Shown here in pieces: positions 18,236 through 49,799 of a stretch of DNA of 64,000 nucleotides. The position numbers and the translations under genes are program-made. A model generated the notes under the pieces. It ran no database searches. It was not told the origin of the DNA and worked only from the letters and a program-made list of their open reading frames with translations. Position 1 is the first letter of the stretch. Each line of letters begins with the position of its first letter. The DNA is from Polytrichum commune (Eukaryota > Streptophyta > Polytrichopsida > Polytrichales > Polytrichaceae), in NCBI GenBank assembly GCA_950295325.1, contig OX485807.1, positions 18,509,666-18,573,665 of the forward strand. The letters run 5' to 3'.

Positions 18236-18263
18236 ATATTTTTGTGTCGCGCCCAGAAAAAAC

Positions 18264-18780
18264 CTAAGCGCTTGTGAACTTCGTCACAGCCTTAGTTCCT
18301 TCCGATACAGCGTGCTTCGCCAACTCTCCGGGAAGAATCAAACGCACAGCAGTCTGAATCTCGCGACTAGTGATCGTCGGCTTCTTGTTGTACCGAGCAA
18401 GCCGAGCAGCCTCCTGCGCAAGCTTCTCGAAGATATCGTTGATGAAAGAGTTCATGATGCCCATCGCCTTCGATGAGATTCCAGTGTCAGGATGCACCTG
18501 CAGACAAACAAACCAAACCGTCAGATACATTCAACCCACAAAAGTAGCACCTCAGCAGAACAAACACCAAAAGATTCAAATAAATTTCGCAACAGATTAT
18601 TACCTGCTTCAACACCTTGTAGATGTAGATCTTGTAAGTCTCAGTGCTCTTCTTGTTCTTCTTCTTCTTGCCTCCCTCCTTGGATACGGGCTTCTTCTCC
18701 GCCTTCGCCTTGCCTACTGGCTTCTTCTCGGCCTTGGTCTTGGCGGCCTTCTGCTCGGCCTCTGCTGCCTTGGGAGCCAT
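18264..18780 (-). CDS. H2B: Histone H2B, copy 1 (two exons)
   Basis: Core histone that pairs with H2A in the nucleosome. Exon 1 is 18604-18780 (59 codons, ATG at 18780) and ends KVLKQ with donor GT. A 106-nt intron (18498-18603) ends TGCAG. Exon 2 is 18264-18497 and begins VHPDTG. The product is 136 residues: a Lys/Ala-rich N-terminal tail with repeated AEKKPV, then the histone fold ([45 protein letters not shown]) and the end [12 protein letters not shown], which includes the conserved C-terminal Lys context for H2B ubiquitination. The protein is identical to copy 2. A phase-0 intron is unusual for H2B, since most plant H2B genes are intronless. An imperfect octamer-like element lies about 250 bp upstream. 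Confidence 0.97.
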
Positions 18781-25317: not shown

Positions 25318-25333
25318 GGTGTTAATAAACACC
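25318..25333 (-). promoter_or_regulatory. Hairpin 28 nt downstream of the H2B copy 2 stop
   Basis: The same 6-bp stem and 4-nt loop as in copy 1, at the same distance from the stop. The surrounding flank is also conserved, so this is not independent evidence of selection. Confidence 0.4.
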
Positions 25334-25361
25334 AGATTTTTGTGTCGCGCCCAGAAAAAAC

Positions 25362-25878
25362 CTAAGCGCTTGTGAACTTCGTCACAGCCTTAGTTCCTTC
25401 CGATACAGCGTGCTTCGCCAACTCTCCGGGAAGAATCAAACGCACAGCAGTCTGAATCTCGCGACTAGTGATCGTCGGCTTCTTGTTGTACCGAGCAAGA
25501 CGAGCAGCCTCCTGCGCAAGCTTCTCGAAGATATCGTTGATGAAAGAGTTCATGATGCCCATCGCCTTCGATGAGATTCCAGTGTCAGGGTGCACCTGCA
25601 GACAAACAAACCAAACCGTCAGATACATTCAACCCACAAAAGTAGTATCTCAGCAGAACATACACCAAAAGATTCAAAGAAATTTCGGAAAAAATTATTA
25701 CCTGCTTCAACACCTTGTAGATGTAGATCTTGTAAGTCTCAGTGCTCTTCTTGTTCTTCTTCTTCTTGCCTCCCTCCTTGGATACGGGCTTCTTCTCCGC
25801 CTTCGCCTTGCCTACTGGCTTCTTCTCGGCCTTGGTCTTGGCGGCCTTCTGCTCGGCCTCTGCTGCCTTGGGAGCCAT
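25362..25878 (-). CDS. H2B: Histone H2B, copy 2 (two exons)
   Basis: Second gene of the pair, same strand, 7098 bp from copy 1. Exon 1 is 25702-25878, the intron 25596-25701 (106 nt) and exon 2 25362-25595. The 136-residue protein is the same as copy 1; the few exon differences are silent (for example CAC for CAT at the first His of exon 2). The introns differ at more positions than the exons, consistent with purifying selection or gene conversion. The upstream region holds a perfect plant histone octamer (26127-26134) and the downstream region the same small hairpin as copy 1. Both copies look functional. Confidence 0.97.
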
Positions 25879-31783: not shown

Positions 31784-32059
31784 TAATTGAAAAGAAAACT
31801 CCTTTTTATGTGTTTTGCCCTCACGATGGATGAAAGTGGAGATGGACGAGTGTGACATGGATGACTTCCAACGCCCTGCTTCCTTGCTAAAACTTCTCAT
31901 TCTTTCTTGAATGCCATCGCCGCTAGGATTCCTGTCACCGGAACGTAGAGTAAGCTTGAACTCGACATTTCCTGATTGCACGCAAGCATTGCAATCAGAG
32001 AGACTCGAGGACACAAATGCCGTTGCAGTGATTGTAATATCGCAGCATTTGAGGTAGCG

Positions 32060-32509
32060 ATGGCGTGGGTGGGATGGGGTGTGCCGGTGGTGGCGATTGG
32101 CGTTGTTGTTTTCTGTTTCCTACTTCTCTTGGTGTGGATCAGAGCTCCGAAGGCCACCAAGATTCCTATCAAAGGTCGTCACATGGTCATCACCGGCGGA
32201 TCCAGTGGAATTGGCTTGGAGCTCGCGAAGCTGGCAGCGGCCGAGGGAGCTCGGATATCGCTTGTTGCAAGAGACCCTGTGAAGCTTGCTGATGCGCAGA
32301 AAGCCGTGGCTGAGTACGTTGGACAACATATCAAGAGTGGAGGAACACCTGTCAAGGTAAATCGCTCAAAAGGACAATTAAATTTCTTTGAAACTAAAAT
32401 TATGCTACAGAGTTTCTGTTTGCGGTCGTTGTTGCAACTTTAGGGTTTCTGCTTACCACAAAACCTCTGAAGTGGCCAATTTGACTCTTCCGACTTTGTG
32501 CCGATGTTG

Positions 32510-32558
<49 letters not shown>

Positions 32559-34689
32559 GAGAGAGAGTTGGCACGAATGTTTAACGTTTTACGCTTGATC
32601 AAAGCCAAAAAATCAAATGTAATGTAAAATGTGAACACGGGGTGGGTTTGCGGAGCATGGCGAAATCACAACCCCTACTGCTTCATGATGTCGGAGGTGG
32701 TATGTTCCGGGAATCGTCGAGTCCCTACATAATACGGATACGGATGTTGTTATAAGAAGGAAAGATTACTACAACGTTGCCACCGGCATGAATTATGGCA
32801 TTGCTTCACCTTCGAGTTGGTCTAAGTTTATATGTACTCCCGAAATGGGCATCACAAGAATTAGAAAGCATAAGCAAGCCGGCCCACACCTATCTCCCCA
32901 AGGTTAGCCGAAAATATCAGGTTCACACCACACCCGGACACCCGCACTATGATGATTGGGTGGACCATAGACCATAGGTGGTGGGGTGCACGGAAATCAA
33001 GCGCTAGAAATGTCACCCATCCGAATACTATTCTGGCCTTGGGCAGCTTAACCTCGGAGTTCTCATGAGATCTGGGTTAAAGGCCTTGGGTTTAAGCTGG
33101 TCATAAATTATTTATATGTTCTAGGTGCACCGGCTCTAGGACATTTTTTGGAAGTGCTTAATTTAGCGTCTTGTGTCTGGCAGGTCAATGTGTACAGTGC
33201 CGACGTGAAGAGTTTTGCAAGCATAAATAAGGCCATTGAGGCTGCGGTCAGTGAATCAGGCATTGTTGAGCTTTTGGTGCTGAGTCATGGAGTTTCAGTC
33301 CCCGGCACGTTTGAGGAGAGAAGCTTGGAGGAGATGGATCACATGATAGATACCAATCTGAGAGGCAATATGCATGCCATCAAAGCTGCGATACCTCATA
33401 TCAAGTCCAGTAAAGGAGCGCCAGCTTCCATAGCCATATTTTCTTCTCAAGCTGGCCAGGTATGGACGCCTTTGTCTCTATCTGATTTCTTTGTAGATAG
33501 ATTACATGTTTTTTCCAACTTTTACAAGATCATGTGGAGTGAAGGATATGATGTTCACCAGCTTGTGGAGGTGCAGCAGGTGTAGAAACATGCACCTACG
33601 TCAGTGGTTGATGACCTTTTTTGTGCACGAGTCTCCTCCATCTGTATTTAGTGACCAAATAGGTCTGGTATGAGGATATGATGCATTTTACTGTGCATTT
33701 TTGCAATCCAATTGATATGTTAGTTTTAGTTCTTTCTACAACTTCTGTGGGTTTTTTTCAGATATGCCAGCTTGGGAAGAGATCTTTCCACTTCTTGTTG
33801 GCTGCAGATTTATTACAGATGTTAGGTGGTAGTCTGGAATGTGAGGGGTTTGAGCAGATTTTAACTAATTTCTCAAAGATCAAGTCGTCAAAACGTGACT
33901 ATTGAACATGAAATAGTTTTACTTACTGCATCCTTAGCTAGCTTGTGCAGGTACTTGTACATTTAAGATGGTCTTGCTCACCCTGGTTTCTTCTGTTTTT
34001 ATTATCTAACCACATCTGTCTCTTCTGAGTACATATTGTGAACCAAATTTAGACTAAACCGGGGGATCCTGCATCTTAATCGGCTGCAGACAGGAGTATA
34101 TGGATATGCAATATATGCAGCTTCCAAGTTTGCACTTCGTGGACTGGCCGAATCTTTACAGCAGGAGCTCATTGATCGCAACATACGCGTTTCCATCATA
34201 TTCCCCCCAGACACGGACACTCCGGGTTATGCTGAAGGTGCTGTTGACACCATGTTCTGTTGTGGGCATGACTAAGTTGTTATTCTAATTGCTTTTTTCC
34301 AAATGAGCCTGGATTTTTGATCATGTAGTGAAGTTCTCAGACTAGGAATTCATAAGTCCAACTGGTTTTGTTGTGTGGTGGGGACAGAACTCAAGTTTAT
34401 GCCCGAGTTGACAAAGAAATTATCGGAATCGTCAAAGGCAATGGATGCAGTCTCAGTAGCTCACAAGGCTCTGGCAGGTGTGAAGGCTGGTCACTTCAAT
34501 ATCAGCTGCAACTTTGATGGGTTTATGCTGAACATTGTGAACGCGGGGATGTCACCCCAACCCTCTTTTCTTGTGGCTCTGGCAGAGATCTTGGCCATGG
34601 GCCCAATGCGCATTGTCGCATTTTTTGTGCTGAGGGGTTGGTATGATACTATTCACTCATCTCAAAAGCATTTGCAAACAAAAAAGTGA
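32060..34689 (+). CDS. TSC10: 3-ketodihydrosphingosine reductase (four exons)
   Basis: NADPH-dependent ER enzyme that reduces 3-ketosphinganine to sphinganine, the second step of sphingolipid synthesis. Exons: 32060-32356, 33184-33459, 34090-34237, 34388-34689; all introns GT-AG; total 340 residues. A hydrophobic N-terminal helix (about residues 9-27) precedes the Rossmann fold. Short-chain dehydrogenase landmarks are the cofactor loop TGGSSGIG (about 45-52), VLSHGVS, the DTNLRG helix, the catalytic Ser in SSQAGQ, and Tyr-x3-Lys in YAASK. PPDTDTPG after the active site is typical of the KDSR family. A second hydrophobic stretch lies near the C-terminus (FVLRGWY). The start is the only ATG giving the anchor helix. 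Intron 1 (827 nt) holds an AC/AT/AG microsatellite. The gene appears intact. Confidence 0.93.
32513..32567. repeat. Compound (AC)n(AT)n(AG)n microsatellite in KDSR intron 1
   Basis: Consecutive runs of AC, AT and AG dinucleotides inside the first intron; length polymorphism is expected. Confidence 0.95.
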
Positions 34690-37600
34690 AACCTACTATT
34701 TTTGTACCAGATGTTGCTCCCTGTGTACCATCCTTCAGATTTCTTGGAAATAGTAGAGTGGAATCGATAGACAGCTAGAGAAGTTCAGTCGCACCTGTGG
34801 CATCACTATCTGTTAATTCTATTACTGTTGATAGCAGCTGTTGAAAGCAACAGGTGACATTCTAGAATCACCAGCTTCAAGGTAAAATTTGCATACAACC
34901 ATTACTACTGTAGTTATCTTGTGTATGAGGTGCAACTTGATAAAGCCATCAACTGGTCTATATCTTATCTTTGCTGTCATGATGTGACTTATTTTTAAAT
35001 TAAATAAAAGAGAACGCCTGTAGCTAAATACGGGCGTGAATTTAAGCCCATTGGCCTGGTGCTGATCACAGGTGCCGTGAGACTTCTTTTTAAAATGTAC
35101 CTTCATGCACGTTGCTCAGTTTGCCCCTTCCCAAGTTTCCACATTAATGCAGGTTATCATATCCCATATCCTGGAAGTGATGTTATACTGAAATTTGGTG
35201 CGTTACCTCCTGCAATTGAACTATTTTTTGTGAGTACTACTTGTATGGTAGTAATCGAGTTAGTAATTGTTTAGTTCATTATTGAGATGGTTAGTCACTC
35301 ACTCCTGATTCTTCTTGGACCTTCTCAGATGACGATTAGAAATTCACGTCTTCCACCATGAGTAGTAATTGTATGAATTGTAGGGTGTGGGAGGGGGACT
35401 ATGTGTGTTGAACTTTGGCTTTGGGGCTCCTATTATACATAGGATTTTTGGTCTCAAGTTTGCTAGACATTGATATGGCGGTTGTGCACATGTGCATTTG
35501 AGTAATCATTCTAGGATTGTTGAGTTGGGGGGCTTGTTGTTGAAGTTTCTTGCATACGTCAGCATGACGAATTGGATAAATGTGTTGTATTATACTGATT
35601 GGGTGATAAGGTGTACCACTTTACTGGGGTGGGTTATTCGAAGGCCTTAAGGTTACATGGCTACATGGTTGATATAAAAAATATATATTCATATGAGCCT
35701 TTGTTCTAAACATAGGTATAAAGAAAGAAAAAACATTTGTACCCTCAATTAGATATTTGATGAATATTCAAAGTCAAAACCATTAGCTTTCTTAAACCAA
35801 TATACATGCCCCATGTATGACGATCTTGGATATGATGACCCCCACCTTCATTGCCTAGAATCAACACAACAACGTTGGGTATTAGGCCCAAGCTATATCA
35901 AAGACCAACTAGTAACGGTGTGCAAAGCCACATGGCCCCCTCCATGATCCCACCTAGTTCCCTTGCAAAACCATCACCTTGCATCCTAGGCATCAAACCC
36001 CAATGTGCTTTGTGGGCTTACCTCTGTGACTTTGTGTATAGGATGGTTGTAAACCCTTCCCCCTCCAGTGTATAGAATGGCTAGAATAGCCACCCTAAAC
36101 CCACCTTGAACCAACCCAAGATAGAGTGGAGCCTGTTACCTACCCTACATGAAGGTAGTGGAGGTCGCTATGAGGTGGTGCCACTAATGGCACCTAAAAG
36201 GATCACTTTGTGGGCCCATACACTCCTACACCATGGGGAATGCTTCAAGGTAGTAGAGTGTTGGTGATTGGGAGGCATTTATAGGTGTTGGTTTTAGCAC
36301 CCTCTACCTTATATGTGTTGGTTCTCACATGTAGATAGGAGGTGGGGTCATGTGTCTCGAGTGTTTTTGGAACAAAGTGTGCAGTTGGGATTAAAGTGTG
36401 TGGTGGGCATTTTAATTTTAATTTTTTTCATATGGTTGCCCATGTATTGTACGTATCTAACTTTTAGAGTTTGAGTAATTTGGACCTTTGGGATTCTTAG
36501 GGCCTTTTAAAAATGATTGGATATGGTGTATTTGGTCATTTGATAGCCATTTGTTGACACACATGAATTTGTTTATGGCCAAGTTGCTTTCTTGTTTTCG
36601 GTGTTCTTTATTGATGAATGTGTGGAGGTTGCAAATGGCTCTCTCATGTGTGTGTGGCAGTTAGGCAATTGGCTAACCAATAAGGAGTAGTGTGTGCAAT
36701 GTTTATGTGCGGTGTAGTTGTGGCTTTGTCTTTGTTGGCACCTTTGTTTGCTAGCGTATGCTATTTTGTTGTCGGTGATGCATGTGTGGGCTCTGATTTT
36801 GTGGACGGAAATTTTGTGTGAGGTCCAATATATTTGGTGTATGATTGCTATTATGAATATTTTGTCAGGGTGTTGTTGTTTTCAAGAGGGGTGTCTTATG
36901 TGATTGTTTATGAAGAGTATGCTACTAAGGTTTTGTAAACCTTTCTTGGTTTTAAAATTTTAAAATTTTTTTTAACCATAGCTTGGCTGAAGCGGGCATC
37001 TCTCAAATTTTGGTGGCTTTCATCTAGTGTTTGCTTGGTTAGATTCTCATTCATAGTAAGATTAGAAGGCTATTGCCATGATAAGTTGGTTATTGCTTGT
37101 GACCACCTTCTCCTTCCTCTCGACAATGCGGAGAATGTTGGCTAAGGTAGAATCTGGCAGTCTCAACATAGCAAGCAATAGGCTTTGGAACCCCGAGCCT
37201 CAGTAACCAAGATCGATGATATAATTGATAGGATTGATCCCAAGTACGTCTTGACGATAGATGTGGATTGATTGAGCAAATTGATTCGGAATCCTAAATT
37301 TTCTTATTAAACTTTGACATGTGAGGGAAAGGATACTTATTTTTTGGAATTGTCTGTGTGTATGGAATGTTGATTATGGAAATTTGTGATTTGAAGTAAG
37401 TAAAGATGTGAGATGTATGGAAGATGAGGCTATAAGCATTAGGTCATGCAAGTGGTCTATTAAGTGGGAAGTGAAGTGATTGAGAGGTTGTGCGAAAAGA
37501 TTGAATAAATTTGTATAAATATTGTTAATAAGCCATGAGTGACACAAAGTGAGTTGACTGAGAAGCTTGGAGGAGTTTCTAGACCCGTAGATAATGTCAA

Positions 37601-39875
37601 GAGAGGGTAACTCTCCTGTGAAAAGAGGAAGATCAATAGCCTAAGAAAAAGTGAACAAACTAGGAGAGTATGGGATGGGTATAGTCATTATGAGTGAAAT
37701 ATGAAAGGCCATAGCCAAGTCTCATATTGGGAGTTAACCAAAAAAAGGAAATGCATTATTATAGGGTAGGATTACAATCATGCTATAGCCTAGTGGATAT
37801 AATGTATTTTATAAGAATAAGAAATGAGTTTACATGCGGAGGTGATGGAGCCTTAAGAACATTTTGGGCAGGTATGGGTTGCCAAGGACATTGCCTTGGA
37901 AAGAGAAGACTTACTTTACTAGCATAAGAATATACCAAGGCCCATTATTTGGGTGTTAAACAAGATTAAGAGTATCTAATAAAATTTTACCGGTTACCGA
38001 TGATGATCATTAGTTATTAAATATAGTGTCTACTCCATGCAAAGGGTGAAGTAGTTTTACTTCTAACGCCATTGCCCTAGGGCGTGGCCTAGGATGTCCT
38101 ATGAACATACACTTTATTCACTCCGGCCTCCTCTGGAGACTGGAGTTCTTCTTCTTCTATCTAATAAGTGATATAGCCTATCTTGTAGATACGTTGTTAT
38201 TGTATTAACACGTGTGGGTGATTCTTGAGACAAGTTGTTAGGTCCACCAAAGACAAAGGTGGTGAATACAGTTGTGAAAATTTGCATAATGGTTGTAAGT
38301 TGATTAAGTGAAAATAATTAAGATTATCGCAAGCATAATTCAAGGCAATTAGAAACTATGTGGTTACTCAAAAGACATAACCCTAAACTTTGTCTTGACT
38401 ATGAGCCATTGACTATTTGCCAAGTTATTGAGCTTCATGATTGAAGTAGAGCATAGAACTAAATTGATAGGATTCCACATACAAGATGGAACCACACACA
38501 ACTAAGAAAGCACAAACAAACCATAAGAATGTGAACTAAACATGATTAAGAAGGAATGAATGAGTAAAAAGAACATAAACTGTAATTAGAACCTTCATCC
38601 AATTTTACATTAATCCTTATAGACATTAGCTTACTCTTCCCTTAGACCTTGTACCTTGGGTTGTTTTCCTTGGGCTAGTTTAAGTGATAGCAAAAACCTG
38701 ACTACATGCCGTATGTGAATATGTGTATGTCTATTTGGGTGGTTTGTATGATTTTTATGGTAGTTAGTATAGCATTTAATTATCCTCAAAAGATGTTTTG
38801 GTGGCCAAGTACTTTATGATATTGGTATGTTATTGTTGGGGTTGTATATTCCGAACCTTGTGTTGTTGCCTTCTACTTGTCCTTCTGACCTCTTGATGGG
38901 TGGGATGAAGGAGTCCATATATATGCATTCACGTGGGTGAAATTTGAGAGGGTGGTTGTGGTTGTATTTGGTTGGTAGGGGTGTTGTGGAGGTGGTGTCC
39001 GGAGGGGGGTCTACTTTGGGTGCGGACTTCCATGCAGTTGAGAGTTTGATATTTTATTGTGAGGGGTAGGTTGGATTGGGTAGGTGTCCACATGGATATC
39101 ATTGAGTATTTCTATAACATGTTGGAGTTCTTGTGGAGTTTGTACGTGTCCTAGGGGGTTTGGTTGATTATGTATGCATATTATGAATGTGAGGGAGGGT
39201 TGATAATATTTTGACCATTGTGGTGTGAGGTTGTAGCATACAGTATGTGGTGGGATGGTTGTTACTATGTGGTTGGTCATGTATGTGAGATTCTAGACAT
39301 TGGATTTGTATAGTGGGCTTGTTTGTGTGGATATCCTTATTTAGGTTGCACTCTTGGGTGGATAGTGCGAGGTTGGTTATTTGTAGGGGTGGGGGGTATG
39401 TATTTGGTGTTCTTGGATTGGGTGTGGTTTAAGCAACTTTTGTATGTTTGAAGTTCTTTTTGTGCGTGGGTTATTGTATGGTATTGTGTTAGGAGTAGTA
39501 GGTTGTGATTTAGCAAGATGTTATGAGGGTTGAAGAGTTCGACTCCTCCCCTCCATTGGTGTGTATGTGACCTCACGGTATTTTCCGTTGACTGAGATAG
39601 TGACTTTGGATGGATTGTGCCCCCCCATTTGACTTTCATGGTGGCAATTTTGGTATTTATTATGGTGTGTATTTTTGTGCCTAAGGAGGATTGGGGTGTT
39701 ATGGCTAGAGTGGTGTTGGATGTGAGGATGTTGGGCGTACGTGGAGGTGTTTGGGGGATGGGGGAAGTATGTGTTCATGTTGGAGGGCGTTCTTGATGAT
39801 TATGGGTGTATGTTTGTACTTGGTATGGGTATTCTTCTGTGATCAGGATGGCCATGGTATTATTGTTTGGTATTT
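34690..39875. other. Intergenic, partly C-poor region, no gene seen
   Basis: The first about 700 bp are the 3' flank of the reductase gene. From about 36.3 kb to the gypsy insertion the plus strand is conspicuously rich in T and G and poor in C. On the minus strand this leaves long A/C-rich frames (39011-39778) full of His, Thr, Asn, Pro and Gln, in several frames at once. I see no protein domain there and treat them as compositional. Confidence 0.45.
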
Positions 39876-39879
39876 GGGT

Positions 39880-40419
39880 TGTCGTGTAAACTAAGATCGT
39901 TAAACACAACAGATCGAGTGTCGTCATCAACATCAATTAGCAAAATAAACATAGCAAACTAATATGCTAAACAACTACCTCTTCAAGATGAGGGTTTCTC
40001 TCTCCAAGCTCAATAAACTAAGAAGTCTTCTTAGAAAGCTTAAGAAACTCTAAAATTCACACACAAGAGTCAAGCTATCTCTCACTCCACAAAGGGAGAA
40101 TCCAAGAGTGCAAGTGATGGAGAAAGAATGCAAAGGCTTTATTCATGATCTACTACACCATAGCCATAAGATAGCAACAACAAGCTCTCTCTCTCTCAAA
40201 ACACACTCACAAGACTTGACTTGACAACAATGGCAAGTCAAGATGCCTTCCTCTCCACATAACCCCAATCCTATGTGGATTTCATCCATGGAGTGGATGA
40301 ACAACTAACTAGGACTCCCAATGGAGTCCATCACTCATCCAAACACACATGGACTCCTAATGGAGTCCATTTACTCCTAATTCGACGTGACTTAGCCCCC
40401 GATGTCAACTCACGTGACA
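39880..40419 (-). repeat. 3' LTR of the gypsy element (540 bp)
   Basis: It starts TGTCGTG and ends GTGACA on the plus strand, with TGTC/GACA inverted ends. It includes a 108-bp outer block (39880-39987) that is absent from the other LTR, then the 432-bp core. The core holds two dyads of the form GGACTCC-N4-GGAGTCC and a short CT run. Confidence 0.85.
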
Positions 40420-40421
40420 GC

Positions 40422-40529
40422 TGTCGTGTAAACTAAGATCGTTAAACACAACAGATCGAGTGTCGTCATCAACATCAATTAGCAAAATAAACATAACAAA
40501 CTAATATGCTAAACAACTACCTCTTCAAG
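40422..40529 (-). repeat. Extra copy of the 108-bp LTR block inside the 3' LTR
   Basis: It repeats 39880-39987 with one difference. It is separated from the 3' LTR by two bases (gc), so the junction reads GACA-GC-TGTC, like an LTR-LTR end junction. Directly on its inner side lies the polypurine tract. Confidence 0.85.
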
Positions 40530-40541
40530 TGCCCCCCCCTA
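40530..40541 (-). promoter_or_regulatory. Polypurine tract of the gypsy element
   Basis: The minus strand carries a run of eight G preceded by A, at the expected place near the 3' LTR, where plus-strand DNA synthesis is primed. It is separated from the start of the LTR core by the extra 108-bp block. Confidence 0.6.
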
Positions 40542-40854
40542 GCAGATAAGGAGCCCCTCCAATCGGCTAGGAACAAACACACTCATCGGTAGAGATGTTG
40601 AACATGATGAAGTTGTTGCTAAATCTGTACATTTCCAATTGGATAGTGGTAATCTAAGGAATTAAATTCATGGTTGAGGAACTAACCCAAGAACTGTAGG
40701 CTGGGTGCAATGTGAGCCCCATCCTTAATCGCCTTCAATAATTTATGTTGAATTCTTGATAATTCTCCCAATGTGATTTTCAATCCAATAAAACTTCCGA
40801 CCAACTAGATAACAACTTCACTACTAAGACATGTGGCAAACATCCACAAAGTCC

Positions 40855-41361
40855 TCAATCATGACCATTAACGGCCATGGAGTGGGAGGCTTTCCGACAA
40901 CGAGGACAAACCCAATTGCCAGAAGGAAGAGTCAAAAGGGGAGGTGTCAAACATGCCATGTGCCATCCACGTTGACAATGGTCGCACAATAACATTGTTG
41001 CAGCTCCTTTCTTCTCTCTACACACATAACAAGGCAGACCCTGTGGTACAACCGCCAACTCGGGATGCACAGAGCCGTCGATGGAAAGGTGACATGGAGC
41101 ACAATTCTTTGAATGCTCACGACATTCCCGTCCATCCTTCCTTTCAAGCAATAATATACCACTTGGTAAAACATCTTTTACCCGCAAAATTGTGCGCCCA
41201 GCCTTGACATCCAATGTCGTAGGCGCCTCCCGTTGCAAGTAAACATAATCCCCCTTGGAAAATCTACGAACCTGAGGTCGATAAGCTCCACTGCGGATCC
41301 GGGCATACCGTAATGTATCACGATGTTGAGCTATATTTAAGTTCTCCATGACCATAGGCAT
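40855..41361 (-). pseudogene. gypsy integrase C-terminus fused to a PHD finger
   Basis: This continues the integrase frame after a TAA at 41377. It starts with the usual C-terminal region (RRFSKGDYVYLQREAP, ILRVKDVLPSGILLLE). About 110 residues in, a complete C4HC3 PHD finger follows: CYVC, LLCDHC, WHMAC, WVCPRC, with the Trp two residues before Cys7 that is typical of PHD fingers. PHD fingers read histone H3 tails. Chromoviruses of the same superfamily carry a chromodomain here instead. The stop at 40855 is the natural end of the polyprotein. Confidence 0.9.
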
Positions 41362-41376
41362 GGCCTTTTGAAAGAA

Positions 41377-42327
41377 TTATGCTCGGTCATGAAGACATTG
41401 AGCCCAAACATCTGGATCATCCAAGTCTACCACAGGAGCCAATTTCTCTCGCACAGAGCTAGGTAAAATTGGTTCCCGTCCATATAAGAGTTGGTAAGGA
41501 CTATAGGATGCCAAAAATGCTTGCCTGCTGAAACGGTAACCCATTACTATCCATGGTAACATCAAGTCCCAATCGCGATGGTTGCCATGAAACAACCCAT
41601 ACTTCCGCAAACCGCGCTTGACAGTCTGAACAACTCGTTCAGCTAAGCCATCTGCCTCAGGGTGATCTCTGGAAGTTGTTCGATGATCAATCAAAGCCTT
41701 AGTACACAAAGCCTCAAAAGATCCAAGAAATTCTCTCCCTTAATCCGTCAACACCTCTGCAGGTGCTCCAAACCGTGCCAAAACTTGATCAAGAAATGCC
41801 ATAGCCGCCAATTCTGAAGAATTTTGGGGAAGAGCCACGAGTTCAATCCACTTACTAAAATGCTCCACCATCACAAGTACATACTTTGCCCCACGTGGAG
41901 TGATAGTAAGCGGTCTGGCAAAATTTAAAGACCAACGATATCCCAAGCCAATAATAGGTAAAGGTTGAAGTTGAGGTGATAAAGTATTAAAACTTGACCT
42001 GACCCGGTCACATACTTCACACCTAGAAACATAAGTGACAACCTGTTGATACATACCAGTCCACCAATATTGGTTGCGCAACATAGAGTGTGTCCTTCGC
42101 ACTCCAAAATGTCCAAGCTCCTCGTGCACTTGGCGCACTAAAGAAGCTCTTTGATCTGGCCTTGGAACGATGCGCATTGTTCCGTTCGGCCACACACGAA
42201 ATAACAAGCCGTTTGTCCAACGAAACCTTGTTATTCGATGGCTAACTCTATCTCGCTCCATAGCAGATAGTCCAAGAGGAAATATCCCTTGTTGAAGTTT
42301 GTGCAAGACCGCCTGGTCTTCCCACAC
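41377..42327 (-). pseudogene. gypsy integrase (zinc-binding and catalytic domains)
   Basis: The HHCC zinc finger is complete (HEELGHFGVRRTH ... CEVC). The catalytic core has WSLNFARPL, where the first acidic residue should be Asp but is Asn, and YVLVMVEHFSKWIEL. EVLTD, with the second Asp, is cut by a TAA at 41740-41742 just after it. The third residue is present in the following part (DHPEADGLAERVVQTV, Glu). The first and last changes correspond to G-to-A and C-to-T steps. Integrase would insert the DNA copy into the host genome. Confidence 0.92.
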
Positions 42328-42366
42328 ATCACTAACAACGAGAGATTTATCAACCTCCTCATCTTG

Positions 42367-43044
42367 TTATTCCATAAGGATCTCAGCAGCCAATCCCGAC
42401 ATCATTGTGAGATATGTGGCAGCATGCCAACCCGGCACTGCCTCACGATCACAATCTCCATGCCATCTGGCTCTAGTTAAATCCTCATCTGAAGGACTTG
42501 GATTGCGAGACAATCCGTCTGTATCTAAGTTGGCAATTCCTGCTCGGTGAACAACTTCCAAGTCATATTCTTGAAGTAACAATGCCCACCTAGCAAGTTT
42601 CCCGGTGAATTTATCTGATTCCATAAGCCATTTTAAAGGTTGATGATTAGTCACCAAAGTAAATTTTTGCCCATACAAATAAGGTCGAAAATGTGCAATG
42701 GCCCAAACGGCCGCCAAGGCCTCGCCTTCATAAGAAGAATAATTAGATTCAGCATTATTATTGCTCCTAGATGCATAAGCCACCACATATTCATTTCCCT
42801 CTTCATCTTTTTGTGTTAATACCGCTTCCAATCCCACTGCACTCCAATCCGTGTGCAATTGAAAAGCTCTAGACACATCCGGGCGTCGAAGCACTGGCGC
42901 TGAACCGAGCCTCTGCTTCAATGTATCAAATGCATGTTGTTGTTCCCGACTCCAAATCCATGGTTGGTCTTTCCCCGTGAGAATGGTGAGAGGTTTGGCA
43001 ATCAAACTAAAGTTTTTGACAAACCTTCTATAATAATTTGCCAA
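42367..43044 (-). pseudogene. gypsy RNase H domain
   Basis: In frame with RT after the TGA. It begins ANYYRRFVKNFSLIAKPL, the thumb/connection typical of Ty3/gypsy. RNase H follows: LHTDWSAVGLEAVLTQKDEE (first Asp; the usual following residues differ slightly), SYEGEALAAVWAIAHFRPYLYG (Glu), FTLVTNHQPLKWL, where the family usually has TDH/TDN (Asn here), and AGIANLDTDGLSR (Asp). It ends at a TAA at 42367-42369, followed by a linker into integrase. Confidence 0.9.
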
Positions 43045-43062
43045 TCCTAGAAATGCCCGAAG

Positions 43063-43986
43063 TCATGGTATATCACTAGGTGTGGAAATTTTGTACAAAG
43101 CATCCACCTTCGCCTGTTGCACACCAAGACCGCCAGGAACAATCATGTGGCCTAAATAGGGTAATCGATCACGAAAAAACTTACATTTGCCATGATGTAA
43201 ACGGAGTCCCCACCGTTGTAGTCGTTCAAATACCGCTTGTAAATGTCTCACATGATCATGTGGACTATTACTAAAGATGATAACATCATCAATGTAACAT
43301 CTAGCAAACGGTAAACCAACCAATAATTGGTCCATCACCCGTTGAAATTCAGCTGATGCATTCCTGAGACCAAATGGCAAAAATTTCCAATGATAAAGTT
43401 GATCCTTGCCATCTTCATCAATTCCCCAAAATGCGGTCTTCACCCGATCACCCAACAACAAAGGTAGTTGATGATAACCAGACCTCAAAACCAGAGTGCT
43501 GAAGATTCTAGCAAATCCCAGTGCATCAAACAACTCCTCTGGCATCGGCATTGGATATCGATCCGACTTGGTCTTGCGGTTGACTGGACGATAATCACCA
43601 CACATCCGTTTTTCCATCCAATTGCCAAAGATATCTTTATTTGAAGGCATAACCGTGGCACAAACATATTCTCCATTAGAGAGTTCAATCAATTCCGCTG
43701 CCAATAATTCTTGACATCGAGTTTGAACACCCAACCTTTCAGATGTACTAAGTCTGTACGGCCGTCTAAAAACAGGATGGTCGTCCTCGAGTTGAATACG
43801 AACAAGTTTACCTTTATATCCTTCAAGATCATGAAGACTAAAGGCAAAACAATTACGGTAAGAGCGAATAAATGCCCGTACGTTTCGTGCTTCGACACCA
43901 GTAAGTTTTGGCCCCACTTCAATTGGCCAATCGTCAAACTCCGTGGTTTCCTTCTTCATAGAAGGATTGCCACTTGGTGCCAACAC
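43063..43986 (-). pseudogene. gypsy reverse transcriptase domain
   Basis: Typical Ty3/gypsy RT: VFRRPYRLSTSE, a segment with ATVMPSNKDIFGNWMEKRMC, GDYRPVNRKTKSDRYPMP, the catalytic palm region, FLPFGLRNASAEFQRVMD, CYIDDVIIFS, HGKCKFFRDRLPYLGH. In the first palm motif the expected Asp is replaced by Val (STLVLRSGYHQ), while the YIDD Asp pair is intact. RT is therefore catalytically dead. A TGA at 43063-43065, one C-to-T step from Arg, ends this part just before the LRAFLGLANYYRRF segment. Confidence 0.93.
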
Positions 43987-44259
43987 AGCCTGTGATTGCT
44001 AGTCCGTGGAGAGGGCAACACCTTTGCCCCCATCATCTGTACTTGAATCCAAATGCGTATCCTCTCCACTACAATCAGTTTGTGTAGCTAAATAGCTACC
44101 CACATATGAAGTGTCACCAAGAAATAGAAGTGGAAACATTTTGTGGGCCTCCAACTTTCCAAAATCTTAGGCCAAAGCCGAAAAAACACTTTGGGCTCGA
44201 AACTCTTCCGCAACCTGTTGTTTCAAAGAAAATAATCCCTTAGTGTCATTGACCTCCAT

Positions 44260-45264
44260 CTAATCCTTGGATTGCGGCTCCATTGCCCCCTGACCATTGT
44301 ACTCTGTCCTCAGAGGAAGCAATTGGTCATCCATACGTAGTTGAGCAGCAAGACAAATTCCAATTATCCACACAATGATATTGAGATCCATAGCTTGTCC
44401 CAATAGAAAACGTCTCTGACCTTCTTGAAGCCCATGAACAGCCGTGGTGCCTGTAGGAAAACCCATGGCGCGTTCCCGCTCATCTGCCGTAGGCTCATCA
44501 TGAGTTTGGGATTTTGAATCCCAAACCATGCCTGGTCCACGAGATCGAAATGCGAAAGACCGTGGATATGTCACAAAAGTAGGTAGTGCACCTCTCGGAA
44601 TTCCCACCTTGTTAATTAATGCAAATGACAAGGTGTCATCCTTCGAAACTGCCATGGAAACACGATGATCATCCAAAATGTCATCCACCTTGCGATTCAT
44701 AAGGCGGGGAATGCGGGCGATCGCCGCTGAAAGCACCTCAGGTGATACCAAATCGGTCCAAAACCAACGAGGCCGATGAGCAAAGGATCCCAAGGATGCA
44801 ACATCCAGAAATGTTGGAGTACCCAGAATTTGGTTAATGTACTCACCATCCTTCACCACTTTGTGCCGTGTATCACCCAATAATGGCACATTTTCAAAAA
44901 TATACCCTGGCGGAGTTGATTGGTGGGTAAACCACCATTGTGTCAATCGCATCAAATCCGCGAACAAACTAGACCTAGGATCATCCAAACCCTGGCCAGT
45001 TCCTGCCCGTGAATGGCCTTGACAAGGCCATCCTGCAATAATTAAATTCACGTGGCCTAATCTTCTCAAATCCTCATCACTAATCATAGTGACATCTTGA
45101 GGAAGTTGACCACAACATCCAAGAATGGTAGTGGCTGACAATTGTGTGGGGTACCTCAACAACAATTGTTGAATGTGGTGTCGAACGGCTCTGTTGGCTG
45201 CATATTCATTATCTACATGAATATATCGCCTAATTGTAATCCCAGCCTCTAACACTGCCGCCAA
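44260..45264 (-). pseudogene. Cytosine-5 DNA methyltransferase domain (DNMT3-like) in the gypsy polyprotein
   Basis: An enzyme of this type would transfer a methyl group from S-adenosylmethionine to C5 of cytosine. About 335 residues remain in this frame with the motifs in canonical order: motif IV GWPCQGHSRAG with the catalytic Cys; motif VI YIFENVPL (Glu-Asn-Val); motif VIII HRPRWFWTDL; motif IX region ERERAMGFPTGTT; motif X LLGQAMDLNIIVW. Motif I straddles the frame change into 45264-45310. The unpermuted order excludes DRM; the motif X style resembles DNMT3. It lies between protease and RT, in the same frame as RT. A TAG at 44260 and two more stops separate it from RT. All visible catalytic motifs are kept. 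Confidence 0.9.
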
Positions 45265-46427
45265 ACCTGTGCCAATGCCCCAAAGATTTCTACAAGGACA
45301 ATACCTTCAAGTGGTGGTTGCCAACGAATGGGTTGAGCAAAAGAAAATGAGGATGTTGTTGGAGGTGTCTCTCCAAGCCCCAAATCCGCTACAATGTGTC
45401 GACAATGGTCGGATAACTCCTTAGGAGTACGCCATGGTGGAGGTGGATCCTTGAAATGTCGAGCAGAAATTTGTAAAGATGGCAAAATTTGTTGTTCTGC
45501 TACATTACAAGCGTAGTCCAATGTTTCCTCCAACAAAACTGAAGCACAAGGCAAATCCGCAACTGAACCGCTGCAACCAAATATTACCTCCGCAACCATA
45601 GTCATAGAAGTAGCTGTAAATGCTACAGGAATAAATACCTTCCTGCCATCTCCAGAAGACCATCCCGGTCTAATCCATGCCTCTTCAGTCCAATTATCCA
45701 AACCAAAGCCAAGTGGATAAAGAGCTTGCTGACCAACAAGTATATCATAGTTGGTAGCATTAGTAACAACACATTTTATTGACAAATGAGTGTAGGTAGG
45801 TTCTGCCTCCACATTAAAAATCAAACGTAGAGGTGCCTTGGTGTAGCCTGTTGCACGTTCAGTGCCCCCTACTGAAGTCACAATTGTGAATGGACAAGGA
45901 TCTAAGTTTGTTGGCGTCAATCCAAGACTGTCAGCAAGTGCTTTGCCAATCATAACCGGTTGAGCATCGGAATCCATCATAACTCTCAGTGGTGTAGCAC
46001 GAATAGTAGGCATATCCGCGCGTAAAACGACAAACAAAGATTTGTCGTTCATCAGCCGTACAACTCCATGTTGCAAATTATGCCGCTCGCGAGCAGGCCT
46101 TGCAGAAATATCTGCAAGATATTCCGCTCCCGCTGCATAATGCGAAAATGACGTGTCCACTGCTGAAATTGTTGATGGAGGAATATCAGTGTGCTTACCA
46201 AAAGCAATGATCGCCGCATCCGCAAGGCTCGCTCGTAAATTGGCTAAGTCCTCCACCTCCTCAGCCACAGGTACGTCAACAACAGCTTGGGATACATGAA
46301 GGGATGGCAAATCCACCTTACCTTCCAACATTTTCCCAGCTAAATGGAAAACTCCAGCAGGCTTGAAATCCGGAGCTATGAACTCCGAACCCGAGAAAAT
46401 TGGCATATGGAGAATTTTATATGCCAA
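45249..46427 (-). pseudogene. gypsy aspartic protease region and start of the methyltransferase
   Basis: The same frame as gag continues after the TAG at 46431. The retropepsin core is recognisable: RVMMDSDAQPVMIGKALAD for the active site, then VTNATNYDILVGQQALYPLG. The active-site triad should be Asp-Ser/Thr-Gly but reads Asp-Ser-Asp, so the protease is inactive; a G-to-A change explains it. The last 20 residues (GIVLVEIFG...) already form the first half of methyltransferase motif I. The frame change to the methyltransferase frame occurs there, at a four-G run near 45284-45287. Confidence 0.85.
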
Positions 46428-46430
46428 TGC

Positions 46431-48095
46431 CTACGTAACATCCTTCGAGATGGAATCCCCATCTCTCAAAGGTACAGGGTTTTTAGCCCCAACAACAGTG
46501 GTGTCTACCAATCCAAATGAGAGAGGTAAACGTGCTTGACCAACTTGATCCGCTGGTCCGGCATGGCGAGGATGTGACACCTCGTTGCTACCACCACTTG
46601 TAGAAGCCACCGCATTTGCCAATATTTGTGATCGAGTAGAAGCCGCAACCACCACCTCTCCAGATGCCCCAAACATATACATGTCCGAACCCGAGGTGCC
46701 ACCACCCGCATGCGGCTCAGAAATTTGACCAAAAGATGCAGAAGATTTGAGCTTTTGTTCGAGCTCTGCCACCTTAGCCTCAAGACTCTGCTCCCTTGGA
46801 GATTTGCTAGTGACATAACTGGCAGGCCGCATCTCAGGATGAAGTTGGAAACAATGATCCACATCGTGATTAGTGCCACCACAATGGTTACATTTCAATT
46901 GTCTCTTCTTAGAATTGTCCCATGCCTTTACCGGTTCTATCTTTTGTTTTAATTTTCCCAAAGGCTGAGTTTTCTTCTTCTTAGGACAATTGGGATCATT
47001 CTTCGAATGACCAGCTTCTCCACAACCCCAACAATGCAAAATCTTTTGCTCCTTAACGGGTTGAGTCTCAGCTAAACTACTAGTAGCTGTGACAATTCTT
47101 CTTGATTTCGTACTCTCTGTCATCCAAGATACCATGTTTGTGGCATCGTGTTGACAGAGAGCCCGATCACATCTCTCAACCACGGCAAACGCTTGTGCAA
47201 TTCTAAGAAGAGTTATCCTCGATTACGAAGGCAGAGCAGATGCCAACTTAAGTAGCCGCTTGTCAATCTTAGACAAAAAGATTTTGACAAGCTGACTCTC
47301 AGCAAAAACACCTCCCGACTCAACAGCAAAGCGTGCGAGTCGCGTATACATGGTCCGTGGAGTGTCATCATTCTCTCGGCGGAAATCCTGAATGTGCTGC
47401 ATCTGGTCTCGCCGAAACCCACCATACTCCACCTCCAAATGTGCGACAAATTCAGCAAGGGGATTAAATGGAGGTGGTGGACCAACAGCCGTCAATGCTG
47501 CCTGTGTAGCACGTGCCATCCGTGAAAGGGTAGCCGTGCTACTGCCAGCCACTATTGGCCCAAGTGTCAGTTCTTGGTCCTTAGACTCCTCCGGTGGATC
47601 CTCCTCTTTTAAGGTGGGTGGAGCTAAGGTGGCAATCGCCCCATCTTTAAGGGCTGAAATAAGCTCAACCCGGGCCTCCCAATACTGCTCCACCTCCCGA
47701 AGTTGTCGTTGATGACCCTCTGTCCAGCGTTCGTAAGTTTGGAGTGTCTCATACTCCAAATGTTGAGGCAGAAGTTCAAAGGCATACCAATCATTGAAAT
47801 TGGAAGACCTTTGACGTTTCTCCTTAATCCAGGTACGAAATCGGAGTTTCCAATCGGGCAAGGAAATGCCCCCAGCTCGACCTGAGAACCGATCACACAC
47901 TGAACCGTGGTGATCGTCGTCCATTTCGTCGAACGTGCCAACACTCCAAATCCGAAGCCTACTAGTAGTGTCCAACGCCGAAATAGGCTCAAAAGCCTCG
48001 TTGGTGTCTACCTCTGGCTCAAGATTTGTGGTATGCACGTCCTCCAAGTAATCTGGTGATGGAGATCGATAATATCGGCTCCTAGTTTGCACCAT
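46431..48095 (-). pseudogene. gypsy gag polyprotein with two zinc knuckles
   Basis: It starts MVQTRSRYYRSPSPDY at 48095. The first 290 residues include a capsid-like region (FNDWYAFELLPQHLEYETL, FNPLAEFVAHLEVEYGG, FLSKIDKRLLKLASALP). A TAA at 47223-47225 interrupts the frame, which continues with two CCHC knuckles (CWGCGEAGHSKNDPNC and CNHCGGTNHDVDHC). A second stop, TAG at 46431-46433, lies one codon before the protease frame. The protein would assemble particles and bind element RNA. Both stops are one C-to-T step from Gln codons. Confidence 0.88.
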
Positions 48096-48260
48096 AAAAT
48101 AATCACTTGAGTACCGGCAACTATCTACAAAGTAATGGCAACCTGCACCTGTTGCGGGCTATCTAAATGGCAATCCCTTGCCAAATGCCAAGTGTTTATT
48201 TAGGCCCCCATAATTCCAAAATTGTGCAAAGGTTTGAGATTGATAATTAAAATTAAAAAA

Positions 48261-48692
48261 ATCAGCGTTGAAAATGTTAATTTCCAAGGTGATTATGGAC
48301 TCCAATCAACAAACTAATTGTACCAATGGACTCCTACGAAGATTTCACGCAAATTAGGCTCAAATTTCACTCCGTTCGGAGTTAATTTGCTCCCAAAAAC
48401 AAAAATCAGCGTTGAAAATGTTAATTTCCAAGGTGATTATGGACTCCAATCAACAAACTAATTGCACCAATGGACTCCTACGAAGATTTCACACAAATTA
48501 GGCTCAAATTTCACTCCGTTCGGAGTTAATTTGCTCCCAAAAACAAAAATCAGCGTTGAAATTAATAATTTCAGCAATGATTTTGAATTCCAATCAACAA
48601 TCCAATTACACCATTGGATTCCTTGGCAAATTTCACACAAGATAGGCTCAAATTTCACTCCAATCGGAGCTAGTATGCCCCCAAATTTGAAC
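48261..48692. repeat. Tandem 144-bp repeats in the gypsy leader
   Basis: The word atcagcgttgaaa recurs at 48261, 48405 and 48549, giving three units of 144 bp. The first two are almost identical and the third diverged. The array lies between gag and the 5' LTR. Each unit contains ggactcc-like words shared with the LTR dyads. Confidence 0.85.
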
Positions 48693-48869
48693 CTCAAAGT
48701 TTGTGAGAATGGGATGCCAAGTTTGAAAGGTGAAAGTAAAAATGTGAAATAAATAAATAAATAAAAATACAAAATACAAAATACAAAATTTGTTAGAATT
48801 AAACAAAACAAAGCAAAACAAAAACAATAAATATAAATAAATAAATAAATAAATAAAGGTAAGGGGGCT

Positions 48870-49030
48870 TACCTTAGGGGCCTGGCTGGCGCCGCCCGCC
48901 CCGCCCCGGCTGACGCCGCCGCCGTGGGGCCAGGCTGACGCCCGCCCGTCCCCGGCATGGAGAATAAGAGCTCCAGGAGCTCCAAGAGCTCCAAGAGGGT
49001 CCGGTGAGCTCTGGATCCGTCCGGAGCTCA
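48870..49030. other. GC-rich island in the gypsy leader
   Basis: After AAAT-type low-complexity sequence (48748-48856) comes a short, very GC-rich stretch (gccgcccgccccgcc) with the word aggctgacgcc repeated. It contrasts sharply with the AT-rich neighbourhood. It could be a structured RNA or packaging region of the element, or captured host DNA. Confidence 0.5.
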
Positions 49031-49355
49031 ACAAAAATTAAATTCAAATCGTATTTGAACTAAAAACAATTAAAACTAAATCGGATTTGATTAAAAAAAA
49101 TTAAACTTTGCTTCCACAATTTGCAAGCAAGAAAGATGTGACTTGACATTCCATTTGGTCTCAAGATTCAACCATCAACAATTCAAGAAAACACAAAGAC
49201 ACAACAAAAGAGATGTGGAGATTTTTCTCAAAATCTTCTTGAGGGTTGCAAGGAATTGCAAGCTAAGCTTTCATACACTTATATCACTCATTTGCTCCCA
49301 CTACTGGGCCATTCTAGCTCAGAAATACAACCAAAAATGAAAAATAAGCCATTGT

Positions 49356-49795
49356 TGTCAAGTATGAGGGTTTCTCTCTCCAAGCTCAAGAAACTAAGAA
49401 GTCTTCTTAGAAAGCTTAAGAAACTCTAAAATTCACACACAAGAGTCAAGCTATCTCTCACTCCACAAAGGGAGAATCCAAGAGTGCAAGTGATGGAGAA
49501 AGAATGCAAAGGCTTTATTCATGATCTACTACACCATAGCCATAAGATAGCAACAACAAGCTCTCTCTCTCTCAAAACACACTCACAAGACTTGACTTGA
49601 CAACAATGGCAAGTCAAGATGCCTTCCTCTCCACATAACCCCAATCCTATGTGGATTTCATCCATGGAGTGGATGAACAACTAACTAGGACTCCCAATGG
49701 AGTCCATCACTCATCCAAACACACATGGACTCCTAATGGAGTCCATTTACTCCTAATTCGACGTGACTTAACCCCCGATGTCAACTCACGTGACA
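49356..49795 (-). repeat. 5' LTR of the gypsy element (440 bp)
   Basis: It starts TGTCAAG and ends GTGACA on the plus strand. The 432-bp core (49364-49795) differs from the other LTR at two sites only. The 108-bp block is missing, apparently deleted between TGTC and AAG. As the 5' LTR it should carry the promoter. I found no convincing tRNA primer site beside it. Confidence 0.85.
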
Positions 49796-49799
49796 GGGT

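What the first reader, a model, noticed from the sequence alone, without database searches (positions are those of the whole stretch)
40855..45310. A Ty3/gypsy element carrying both a C5 DNA methyltransferase and a PHD finger
Seen: between protease and RT lies a methyltransferase with motifs IV (PCQ), VI (ENV), VIII, IX and X in order, in frame with RT, and the same polyprotein ends in a complete C4HC3 PHD finger after integrase. Known: methyltransferases captured by retrotransposons were reported in dinoflagellates and charophyte algae, and chromoviruses use a chromodomain after integrase. Inference: this element combines a DNA-methylation writer with a histone reader, which could let it methylate its own DNA or target chromatin of a given state. 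I know of no described land-plant family with this combination.
Basis: partly seen in the sequence, partly recalled or inferred. Interest (0 to 1): 0.95.

Follow-up and report, generated by a model that had tools for sequence, protein, structure and literature searches.

The report
Retrotransposon carrying DNMT3 and PHD finger
A broken copy of a jumping gene, probably in a land plant, belongs to a widespread family in bryophytes and green algae that carries its own DNA-methylating enzyme and a histone-reading finger, so it may mark its own DNA and choose where it lands.

Summary
On the minus strand, 39880-49795, lies a 9.9-kb Ty3/gypsy-type element: gag, CCHC, protease, DNMT3-like methyltransferase (MT), RT, RNase H, integrase, PHD finger. 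This copy is dead (8 premature stops, one frame break) but is no private insertion: a public contig (L008) holds an intact copy with the same order, and databases hold many relatives, including Marchantia, Calypogeia, Riccia and Sphagnum.

(1) The MT lies on the Gag side of an in-frame UAG followed by CAAUCA, a known leaky-stop context, in both window and L008. (2) The ends are not ordinary LTRs but DIRS-like split direct repeats (A1...B1-GC-A2-B2) with a 4-bp target duplication. (3) The primer site is complementary to the element's own leader, with compensatory changes in L008 (self-priming). (4) In a sister group the MT lies between RNase H and integrase.

The closest published element is KnitGypsy-Dnmt3 of Klebsormidium (2018). 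The PHD finger, land-plant occurrence, Gag-side MT and self-priming of such an element were not found in the papers searched. Verdict: new variant of a known kind. Self-methylation and PHD-guided integration are inferred, not shown.

The parts
39880..49795 (-). whole element, 9916 bp, ends TGTC...GACA, flanked by GGGT (39876-39879 and 49796-49799)
49364..49795 (-). repeat A1 (5' end of the element)
   Evidence: 429 of 431 compared positions identical to A2
49595..49610 (-). GCCATTGTTGTCAAGT inside A1: putative transcript 5' end / self-primer
   Evidence: exact 16-nt complement of the sequence next to A1
49348..49363 (-). primer-binding site ACTTGACAACAATGGC, directly behind A1
   Evidence: the L008 equivalent pairs 13 nt with compensatory changes
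48257..48685 (-). three tandem copies of 144 bp in the leader
47223..48095 (-). gag, N-terminal part
   Evidence: tblastn to L008 gag, 61.6%
46431..47183 (-). nucleocapsid part with CCHC-type knuckles (weak Pfam matches)
45249..46427 (-). aspartyl protease region (weak Pfam match), ends at the frame break
44104..45279 (-). DNMT3-like C5 cytosine methyltransferase and its C-terminal tail (stops at 44262 and 44169)
43993..44001 (-). UAG CAAUCA, conserved putative leaky stop between MT and RT
   Evidence: context rule in PMC2754532
43063..43986 (-). reverse transcriptase
   Evidence: PF00078 1.5e-26
42367..43044 (-). RNase H
   Evidence: PF17917 6.1e-37
41377..42327 (-). integrase zinc-binding domain and core (stop at 41742)
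   Evidence: PF17921 1.3e-18, PF00665 2.5e-7
40897..41031 (-). PHD finger behind the integrase C-terminal domain
   Evidence: PF00628 1.9e-11; PDB matches
40530..40543 (-). polypurine tract next to B1
   Evidence: same layout in L008
40422..40529 (-). repeat B1
   Evidence: 107 of 108 identical to B2
40420..40421 (-). GC spacer in the palindromic junction GACA-GC-TGTC between B1 and A2
   Evidence: the same junction in L008
39988..40419 (-). repeat A2
39880..39987 (-). repeat B2 (3' end of the element)

Best explanation
This is a dead copy of a family of Ty3/gypsy-type retrotransposons that carry a DNMT3-type cytosine methyltransferase and a PHD finger. Most likely cycle: the transcript starts inside A1; its own 5' end folds onto the primer site next to A1 and primes reverse transcription. 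Translation gives mainly gag-protease-MT, because a leaky UAG ends most rounds; the minority read through to RT, RNase H, integrase and PHD. The MT is thus made at Gag level, enters the particle and methylates the new DNA (its own cDNA) de novo. The cDNA has LTRs of the form B-GC-A; a two-LTR circle or its equivalent is opened at the palindrome GACA-GC-TGTC by the integrase and inserted with a 4-bp duplication, which gives A-internal-B-GC-A-B. The PHD finger behind the integrase docks on histone H3 and steers insertion. Shown: anatomy, repeats, target duplication, conserved UAG context, self-complementary primer site with compensatory changes, catalytic residues, DNMT3 fold. Inferred: readthrough, particle location, DNA methylation activity and target, circle opening, PHD ligand and steering. 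My odds by part: anatomy 0.95; DNMT3 membership of the MT 0.95; readthrough 0.85; self-priming 0.85; active MT in intact relatives 0.7; insertion by cutting the internal junction 0.5; PHD steers integration 0.55; MT methylates the element's own cDNA 0.4.
Against: No activity was measured here; the only tested relative, KnitGypsy-Dnmt3, gave no methylation in yeast, which its authors call inconclusive (PMC5890265 section 10). 17 of 99 MT domains lack at least one of the four catalytic residues, among them a named volvocine protein (P0146, Tetrabaena) and P0150, so methylation is not kept everywhere. Some integrase-PHD elements show no MT between RNase H and integrase (20 of 41 proteins with RT and integrase have no MT in the same protein; for one group this is because the MT is in the other ORF), so the PHD does not need the MT. 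Repeat layout, UAG and primer site rest on two DNA copies. The window copy is dead.
Confidence: 0.6

Rival explanations
1. A host DNMT3 gene fragment and a host PHD gene fragment were captured by chance in this one locus or by nested insertion; the combination has no function.
For: This copy is full of stops and cannot make the protein.
Against: The same order is intact in L008 at saturated synonymous distance, and relatives in many databases keep MT next to protease and PHD behind integrase. MT pN/pS is about 0.27.
Confidence: 0.02
2. The MT serves against the host, not on the element's own DNA: it disturbs host silencing, methylates competing elements or viral DNA, or works as a DNA-binding or Gag-linked structural domain in which catalysis is secondary.
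For: Gag-side position means much MT is made without integrase. In Tetrabaena P0146 and in P0150 the fold is kept without the catalytic residues. A defence role was proposed for transposon methylases (PMC6338049, passages).
Against: 82 of 99 MT domains keep all four catalytic residues. KnitGypsy-Dnmt3 copies are themselves methylated, though by which enzyme is unknown (PMC5890265 section 9).
Confidence: 0.3
3. The split-repeat layout is a local accident: an ordinary element with LTR B-GC-A that lost B at one end and gained it at the other by recombination.
For: Only one flanked copy was available; L008 is a circular assembly without flanks and fits both views.
Against: The GGGT duplication lies exactly at the A1 start and the B2 end, and these ends are TG..CA; the legend of Fig. 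4 in PMC5890265 gives the same DIRS-like layout for KnitGypsy-Dnmt3.
Confidence: 0.15
4. The element uses DIRS-like replication through a single-stranded circle templated by the internal B1-A2 junction, rather than a two-LTR circle cut by integrase.
For: Split direct repeats are the hallmark of DIRS/PAT elements (recalled; layout).
Against: No tyrosine recombinase was seen; a DDE-type integrase is present and the insertion has a 4-bp target duplication, unlike DIRS.
Confidence: 0.25

Closest known systems
KnitGypsy-Dnmt3 of the charophyte Klebsormidium nitens (de Mendoza et al. 2018, PMC5890265; abstract, passages, sections 9 and 10 seen)
   Same: A Dnmt3-type domain, not rearranged, in the coding region of a Gypsy retrotransposon; repeats laid out as in DIRS elements (Fig. 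4 legend); key residues and purifying selection reported there.
   Different: The main text does not mention a PHD finger ('PHD' 0 occurrences), land-plant copies, a leaky stop or self-priming. It places the MT in the Pol ORF; here it is on the Gag side of the stop. No KnitGypsy sequence was available to me, so direct kinship is untested.
SymbioDIRS-Dnmt3 and SymbioLINE-Dnmt of dinoflagellates (PMC5890265)
   Same: Retrotransposons with DNMTs; SymbioDIRS-Dnmt3 was shown to methylate CG de novo in yeast.
   Different: Other retrotransposon classes (DIRS, LINE); independent captures according to the authors.
Chromoviruses, including the self-priming Tcn1 lineage of mosses (PMC6317226, passages)
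   Same: Ty3/gypsy with a chromatin-reading module behind integrase; Tcn1 and Tf1/Sushi use self-priming.
   Different: Their module is a chromodomain; here it is a PHD finger and no chromodomain was found. That paper has no mention of PHD or methyltransferase.
Ginger1 DNA transposons (PMC2836005, passages)
   Same: Gypsy-like integrase with, in Ginger1-9_HM, a C-terminal PHD.
   Different: DNA transposons without RT; the PHD is next to Ulp1.
Arthropod retrotransposons with a methyl-CpG-binding domain (Genome Res 2019; seen only as a reference-list entry)
   Same: A captured epigenetic module in a retrotransposon.
   Different: A reader of methylated DNA, not a writer, in another host group.

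Membership tests
Ty3/gypsy retrotransposon | gag, protease, RT, RNase H, integrase in this order | tested here: met
Ty3/gypsy retrotransposon | two complete LTRs at the ends | tested here: not met
   ends are A1 and B1-GC-A2-B2; an LTR B-GC-A would exist only in the inferred cDNA. Filed as Ty3/gypsy by its protein domains only, as KnitGypsy-Dnmt3 was
Ty3/gypsy retrotransposon | target duplication of 4-5 bp | tested here: met
   GGGT, one insertion
KnitGypsy-Dnmt3-like elements | DNMT3-type, non-rearranged MT inside a Gypsy element | tested here: met
KnitGypsy-Dnmt3-like elements | DIRS-like repeat layout | tested here: met
   against the words of a figure legend; the figure itself was not seen
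KnitGypsy-Dnmt3-like elements | sequence kinship with the Klebsormidium copies | not tested
Chromovirus | chromodomain behind integrase | tested here: not met
   Pfam finds PHD, no chromodomain, in window and L008
DIRS/PAT elements | split direct repeats | tested here: met
DIRS/PAT elements | tyrosine recombinase, no target duplication | tested here: not met
   DDE-type integrase and GGGT duplication
DNMT3 family | motifs in the order I to X and DNMT3 as nearest known structure | tested here: met
   (fold from L008, not from the window copy)
DNMT3 family | N-terminal PWWP or ADD domain | tested here: not met
   none in the Pfam scans of window and L008; the kinship is to the catalytic domain only
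Self-priming (Tf1-type) elements | primer site complementary to the element's own transcript start | tested here: met
   the transcript start itself is not known
Self-priming (Tf1-type) elements | RT phylogeny with Tf1/Sushi/Tcn1 | not tested
   no reference RT set at hand
Type I stop-codon readthrough | UAG followed by CARYYA | tested here: met
   UAG CAAUCA; rule from passages of PMC2754532
Type I stop-codon readthrough | measured readthrough | not testable with these tools
   needs a reporter assay

The most novel reading that the evidence does not exclude
DNMT3-PHD gypsy elements form an old lineage of green plants, from chlorophytes to bryophytes, in which one element both writes DNA methylation and reads histones: the MT is produced at Gag level through a leaky UAG and pre-methylates the cDNA inside the particle, and the integrase-PHD then places this already methylated DNA, opened at an internal palindrome from a circular intermediate, in a chosen chromatin state. 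In volvocine algae the MT has become a non-catalytic domain, a DNMT3L-like path.
Probability: 0.25. Interest if true: 0.9.

Novelty: new variant of a known kind. Interest (0 to 1): 0.75.

Why it matters
It extends methyltransferase-bearing retrotransposons to land plants, where a review said they do not occur (PMC6338049, passage), and joins the writer to a histone reader in one element. It makes an open question testable in a model plant: why should a transposon carry the enzyme that normally silences it? Marchantia has annotated copies, good genetics and published methylomes. The split-repeat, self-priming layout with a conserved palindromic junction also offers a test of whether a DDE integrase can use an internal junction of circular cDNA. 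Retro-MTs can be mistaken for host DNMT3 genes when bryophyte DNMT families are counted.

Tried and rejected
Private capture: rejected by L008 and the database relatives. Ordinary LTRs: rejected for this insertion by the repeat map and the target duplication. tRNA primer: not scored; the self-complement was found first. One polyprotein through MT, RT and PHD: qualified by the conserved UAG. Ancient insertion: the repeats differ at 3 of about 540 positions, while 8 premature stops are too many for that age (expected 0.7-2.8, P 8e-7 to 0.007); so the parent was probably broken already and moved in trans, or the repeats were homogenised. A try to see whether the premature stops come from C-to-T changes gave nothing usable (0 of 8 one step from the L008 codon). 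CpG depletion: observed/expected CpG is 0.68 in the element interior, 0.54 and 0.53 in the flanks, 0.82 in L008; no clear signature.

Viral contigs: the MT of the window found none; the MT alignment found 7 loci with weak, partial matches, not followed up; integrase C-terminus/PHD found none. Genome contigs: 5 loci, one real (L008) and four Streptomyces records with weak, partial matches. Structure of the window MT: poor (pLDDT 61.6), its DNMT3 matches not relied on; a deeper alignment on the L008 MT worked. VIA-align second look: all 50 rows shown are DNMT3 or other C5 methyltransferases; it only re-ranks Foldseek's list. NCBIfam named MT and integrase only in general terms, below cut-offs. 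My MT profile gave hits on a very long branch (P0169, P0238), whose MT assignment is doubtful.

Own genome of the window: the genome search did not complete, so copy number, host and flanked relatives remain open.

Papers: ten searches in an open-access library; a subscription paper or preprint could hold what I did not find. PMC7264820 and PMC9998398 gave no match on land-plant methyltransferase elements with PHD.
Full report
What is in the window. Nine minus-strand ORF pieces between 48095 and 40855 carry, in order, gag, CCHC knuckles, aspartyl protease, C5 cytosine methyltransferase (MT), reverse transcriptase, RNase H, integrase and a PHD finger. Protease and knuckles are weak in Pfam; the others are clear, the integrase core just under its cut-off. 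The MT ORF and everything behind it share one frame; gag to protease share another; the change of frame lies near 45260, in the codons of MT motif I. The copy has premature stops at 47225, 46433, 44262, 44169, 43065, 42369, 41742 and 41379. tblastn with the L008 ORFs finds no second copy in the window.

Ends. The element runs from 39880 to 49795. On the coding strand it reads A1 (432 bp), internal part, polypurine tract, B1 (108 bp), GC, A2 (432 bp), B2 (108 bp). A1 and A2 agree at 429 of 431 compared positions, B1 and B2 at 107 of 108. The ends are TGTC...GACA and the flanks on both sides are GGGT. These are split direct repeats as in DIRS/PAT elements, yet the insertion has the short target duplication of a DDE integrase. 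The B1-GC-A2 junction contains GACAGCTGTC, a perfect palindrome, and is the same in L008 over at least 20 bp while the A side beyond it has diverged. If the cDNA has LTRs B-GC-A, as the polypurine tract before B and the primer site behind A imply, then a two-LTR circle cut at one such palindrome gives exactly the integrated form A-int-B-GC-A-B. This is inference from one flanked insertion.

Primer site. Directly behind A1 stand 16 nt (ACTTGACAACAATGGC) that are the exact complement of a stretch inside A1. Apart from shifted forms of the same match, the longest complement to A1 that starts anywhere else in the interior is 11 nt. In L008 the homologous stretch in A differs, and so does the site behind it, such that 13 nt still pair (next best 12 nt). 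The matched change on both sides supports self-priming as in Tf1. In the plant survey PMC6317226 (passages) self-priming was assigned to Tcn1 and TAR lineages.

The intact relative. L008 is a 9285-bp contig filed under a cyanobacterial MAG (AVDCRST_MAG81), with a 127-bp terminal overlap, i.e. assembled as a circle. The binning is most likely wrong, since the named relatives are plants. Its first ORF runs from gag through protease to MT and ends in UAG; the same frame goes on with a 1043-residue ORF: RT, RNase H, integrase, PHD. UAG is followed by CAATCA in both L008 and the window. UAG CARYYA is the readthrough context of tobacco mosaic virus (PMC2754532, passages). Between the two copies synonymous sites are saturated (pS about 0.70-0.90 by segment), while pN is 0.20 in MT, 0.10 in RT, 0.06-0.07 in RNase H and integrase, 0.11 in the PHD alone and 0.22-0.36 in gag, nucleocapsid and protease; so MT and PHD were under purifying selection, and the stop context did not survive by chance.

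The family. The MT search listed 120 of 147 hits, the integrase C-terminus/PHD search 120 of 176, the gag-protease-MT search 33 of 33, with only the 7992 best candidates scored: 273 proteins. My profiles sort them as MT alone 116, integrase-PHD 57, protease-MT 31, MT-integrase-PHD 23, RT-integrase-PHD 19, RT-MT-integrase-PHD 17, MT-RT-integrase-PHD 3, others 7. Of 123 with integrase 121 show PHD, but the query contained the PHD, so this is not a frequency. 44 proteins hold MT, integrase and PHD together. Two places of the MT stand out: before RT (window, L008, Marchantia P0260, Calypogeia P0258) and between RNase H and integrase (17 proteins directly, e.g. P0147, P0170, P0172). Three contigs appear, by equal contig length and source, to carry the MT ORF and the RT/integrase-PHD ORF together: P0252/P0122 (8955), P0039/P0123 (6232), P0095/P0145 (46784); this is inference from table entries.

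Named hosts: Sphagnum troendelagicum P0042, Riccia sorocarpa P0110 (MT running into RT), Marchantia polymorpha P0114, P0126, P0260-P0262, P0265, P0267, Calypogeia fissa P0258; green algae with integrase-PHD: Haematococcus P0134, Volvox P0141 and P0187, Tetrabaena P0146, Astrephomene P0228. Marchantia P0126 has protease, a fragmentary MT (by my profile only; Pfam does not call it), integrase and PHD in one gene model. The MT of the named algae is likewise seen only by my profile.

Trees. MT tree of 74 rows: the RNase H-to-integrase group is one side of a branch (27 rows, SH-aLRT 99); the protease-MT group forms a set of 38 rows with unplaced MTs (98), which holds the window next to P0001 (84% identity) and the Marchantia, Calypogeia and Sphagnum rows. 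Exceptions: P0269, a protease-MT row, falls with P0222; P0169 and P0238 sit on a very long branch. The integrase tree of 103 rows also separates the window's group (22 rows, 88) from a set of 69 rows with the other architecture (93), in which five rows show no MT in that place. The two splits agree, which fits one old MT with a later change of place, or two captures of related MTs; quick trees cannot decide. No host DNMT3 was in the trees.

The finger. L008's PHD matches CHD4, PHF12, UHRF1, KMT2D and many others; the window's matches PHF12, CHD4, KDM5/Lid, PHF21A. Several of these read the H3 tail with unmodified K4 or R2 (recalled), but the set is mixed and I do not assign a ligand.

Age. Three differences in about 540 repeat positions mean a recent insertion, yet 8 stops are present where 0.7-2.8 are expected (P 8e-7 to 0.007). 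The copy was probably dead when it moved, helped in trans, or its repeats were homogenised.

What is known. De Mendoza et al. 2018 (PMC5890265; abstract, passages, sections 9-10) describe KnitGypsy-Dnmt3 with a DIRS-like repeat layout and a gypsy domain set; PHD is not mentioned in the main text; its MT gave an inconclusive negative in yeast, while SymbioDIRS-Dnmt3 methylated CG. Morozov et al. 2019 (PMC6338049, passages) state that methylase transposons are absent from land plants. A 2025 survey (PMC12344493, passages) repeats the streptophyte and dinoflagellate cases. Reviews of plant LTR elements (PMC6317226; PMC9033089; passages) mention no PHD; the second says that DIRS is known only from green algae. 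A Marchantia methylome paper (PMC5784723, passages) counts five methyltransferases, MET, CMT and DRM. Ten searches found no paper on a land-plant element with MT and PHD.

Verdict. Not categorically new: DNMT3-bearing gypsy elements with DIRS-like repeats were known in one charophyte. New, as far as searched: the PHD finger, the bryophyte spread, the Gag-side MT behind a leaky stop, the self-priming site and the second MT position.

Noticed in passing
window 31976-34650 (+): Intron-split short-chain dehydrogenase gene resembling plant 3-ketosphinganine reductase (TSC10; name recalled; Pfam adh_short in the first exon). Likely the only host gene near the element.
   Followed up: partly
window 4579-11607 (-): LINE-like element: zinc-knuckle ORF, endonuclease-like ORF and RT (PF00078 7.4e-34).
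   Followed up: partly
window 477-1076 (-): Copia-type gag (PF14223 2.2e-42).
   Followed up: no
window 18183-18482 and 25281-25580: 99% identical 300-nt direct repeats 7.1 kb apart with no ORF of 150 residues between them: a non-autonomous or decayed LTR-type element.
   Followed up: no
window 14313-14471 (-): U1 spliceosomal RNA gene, 116.5 bits.
   Followed up: no
window 36001-40000: Strong G-over-C skew (0.18 to 0.50) just left of the element, G/T-rich on the plus strand; cause unknown.
   Followed up: no
window 48257-48685: Three tandem 144-bp units in the element's leader; not looked for in L008.
   Followed up: no
P0146, P0150 (proteins): MT fold kept without Cys, Glu, Asn and Arg of the active site, like DNMT3L.
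   Followed up: partly
MT domains between RNase H and integrase (e.g. P0149, P0157): The motif PCQ reads ECQ in 9 of 15 such domains with RT in view, and Glu also replaces Pro in 7 of 12 partial ones; the catalytic Cys remains in 15 of 15 and 10 of 12.
   Followed up: no
L008; P0002: Pieces of the family are filed in bacterial records (Synechococcales MAG, Obscuribacterales MAG): probable plant or algal contamination of MAGs.
   Followed up: no
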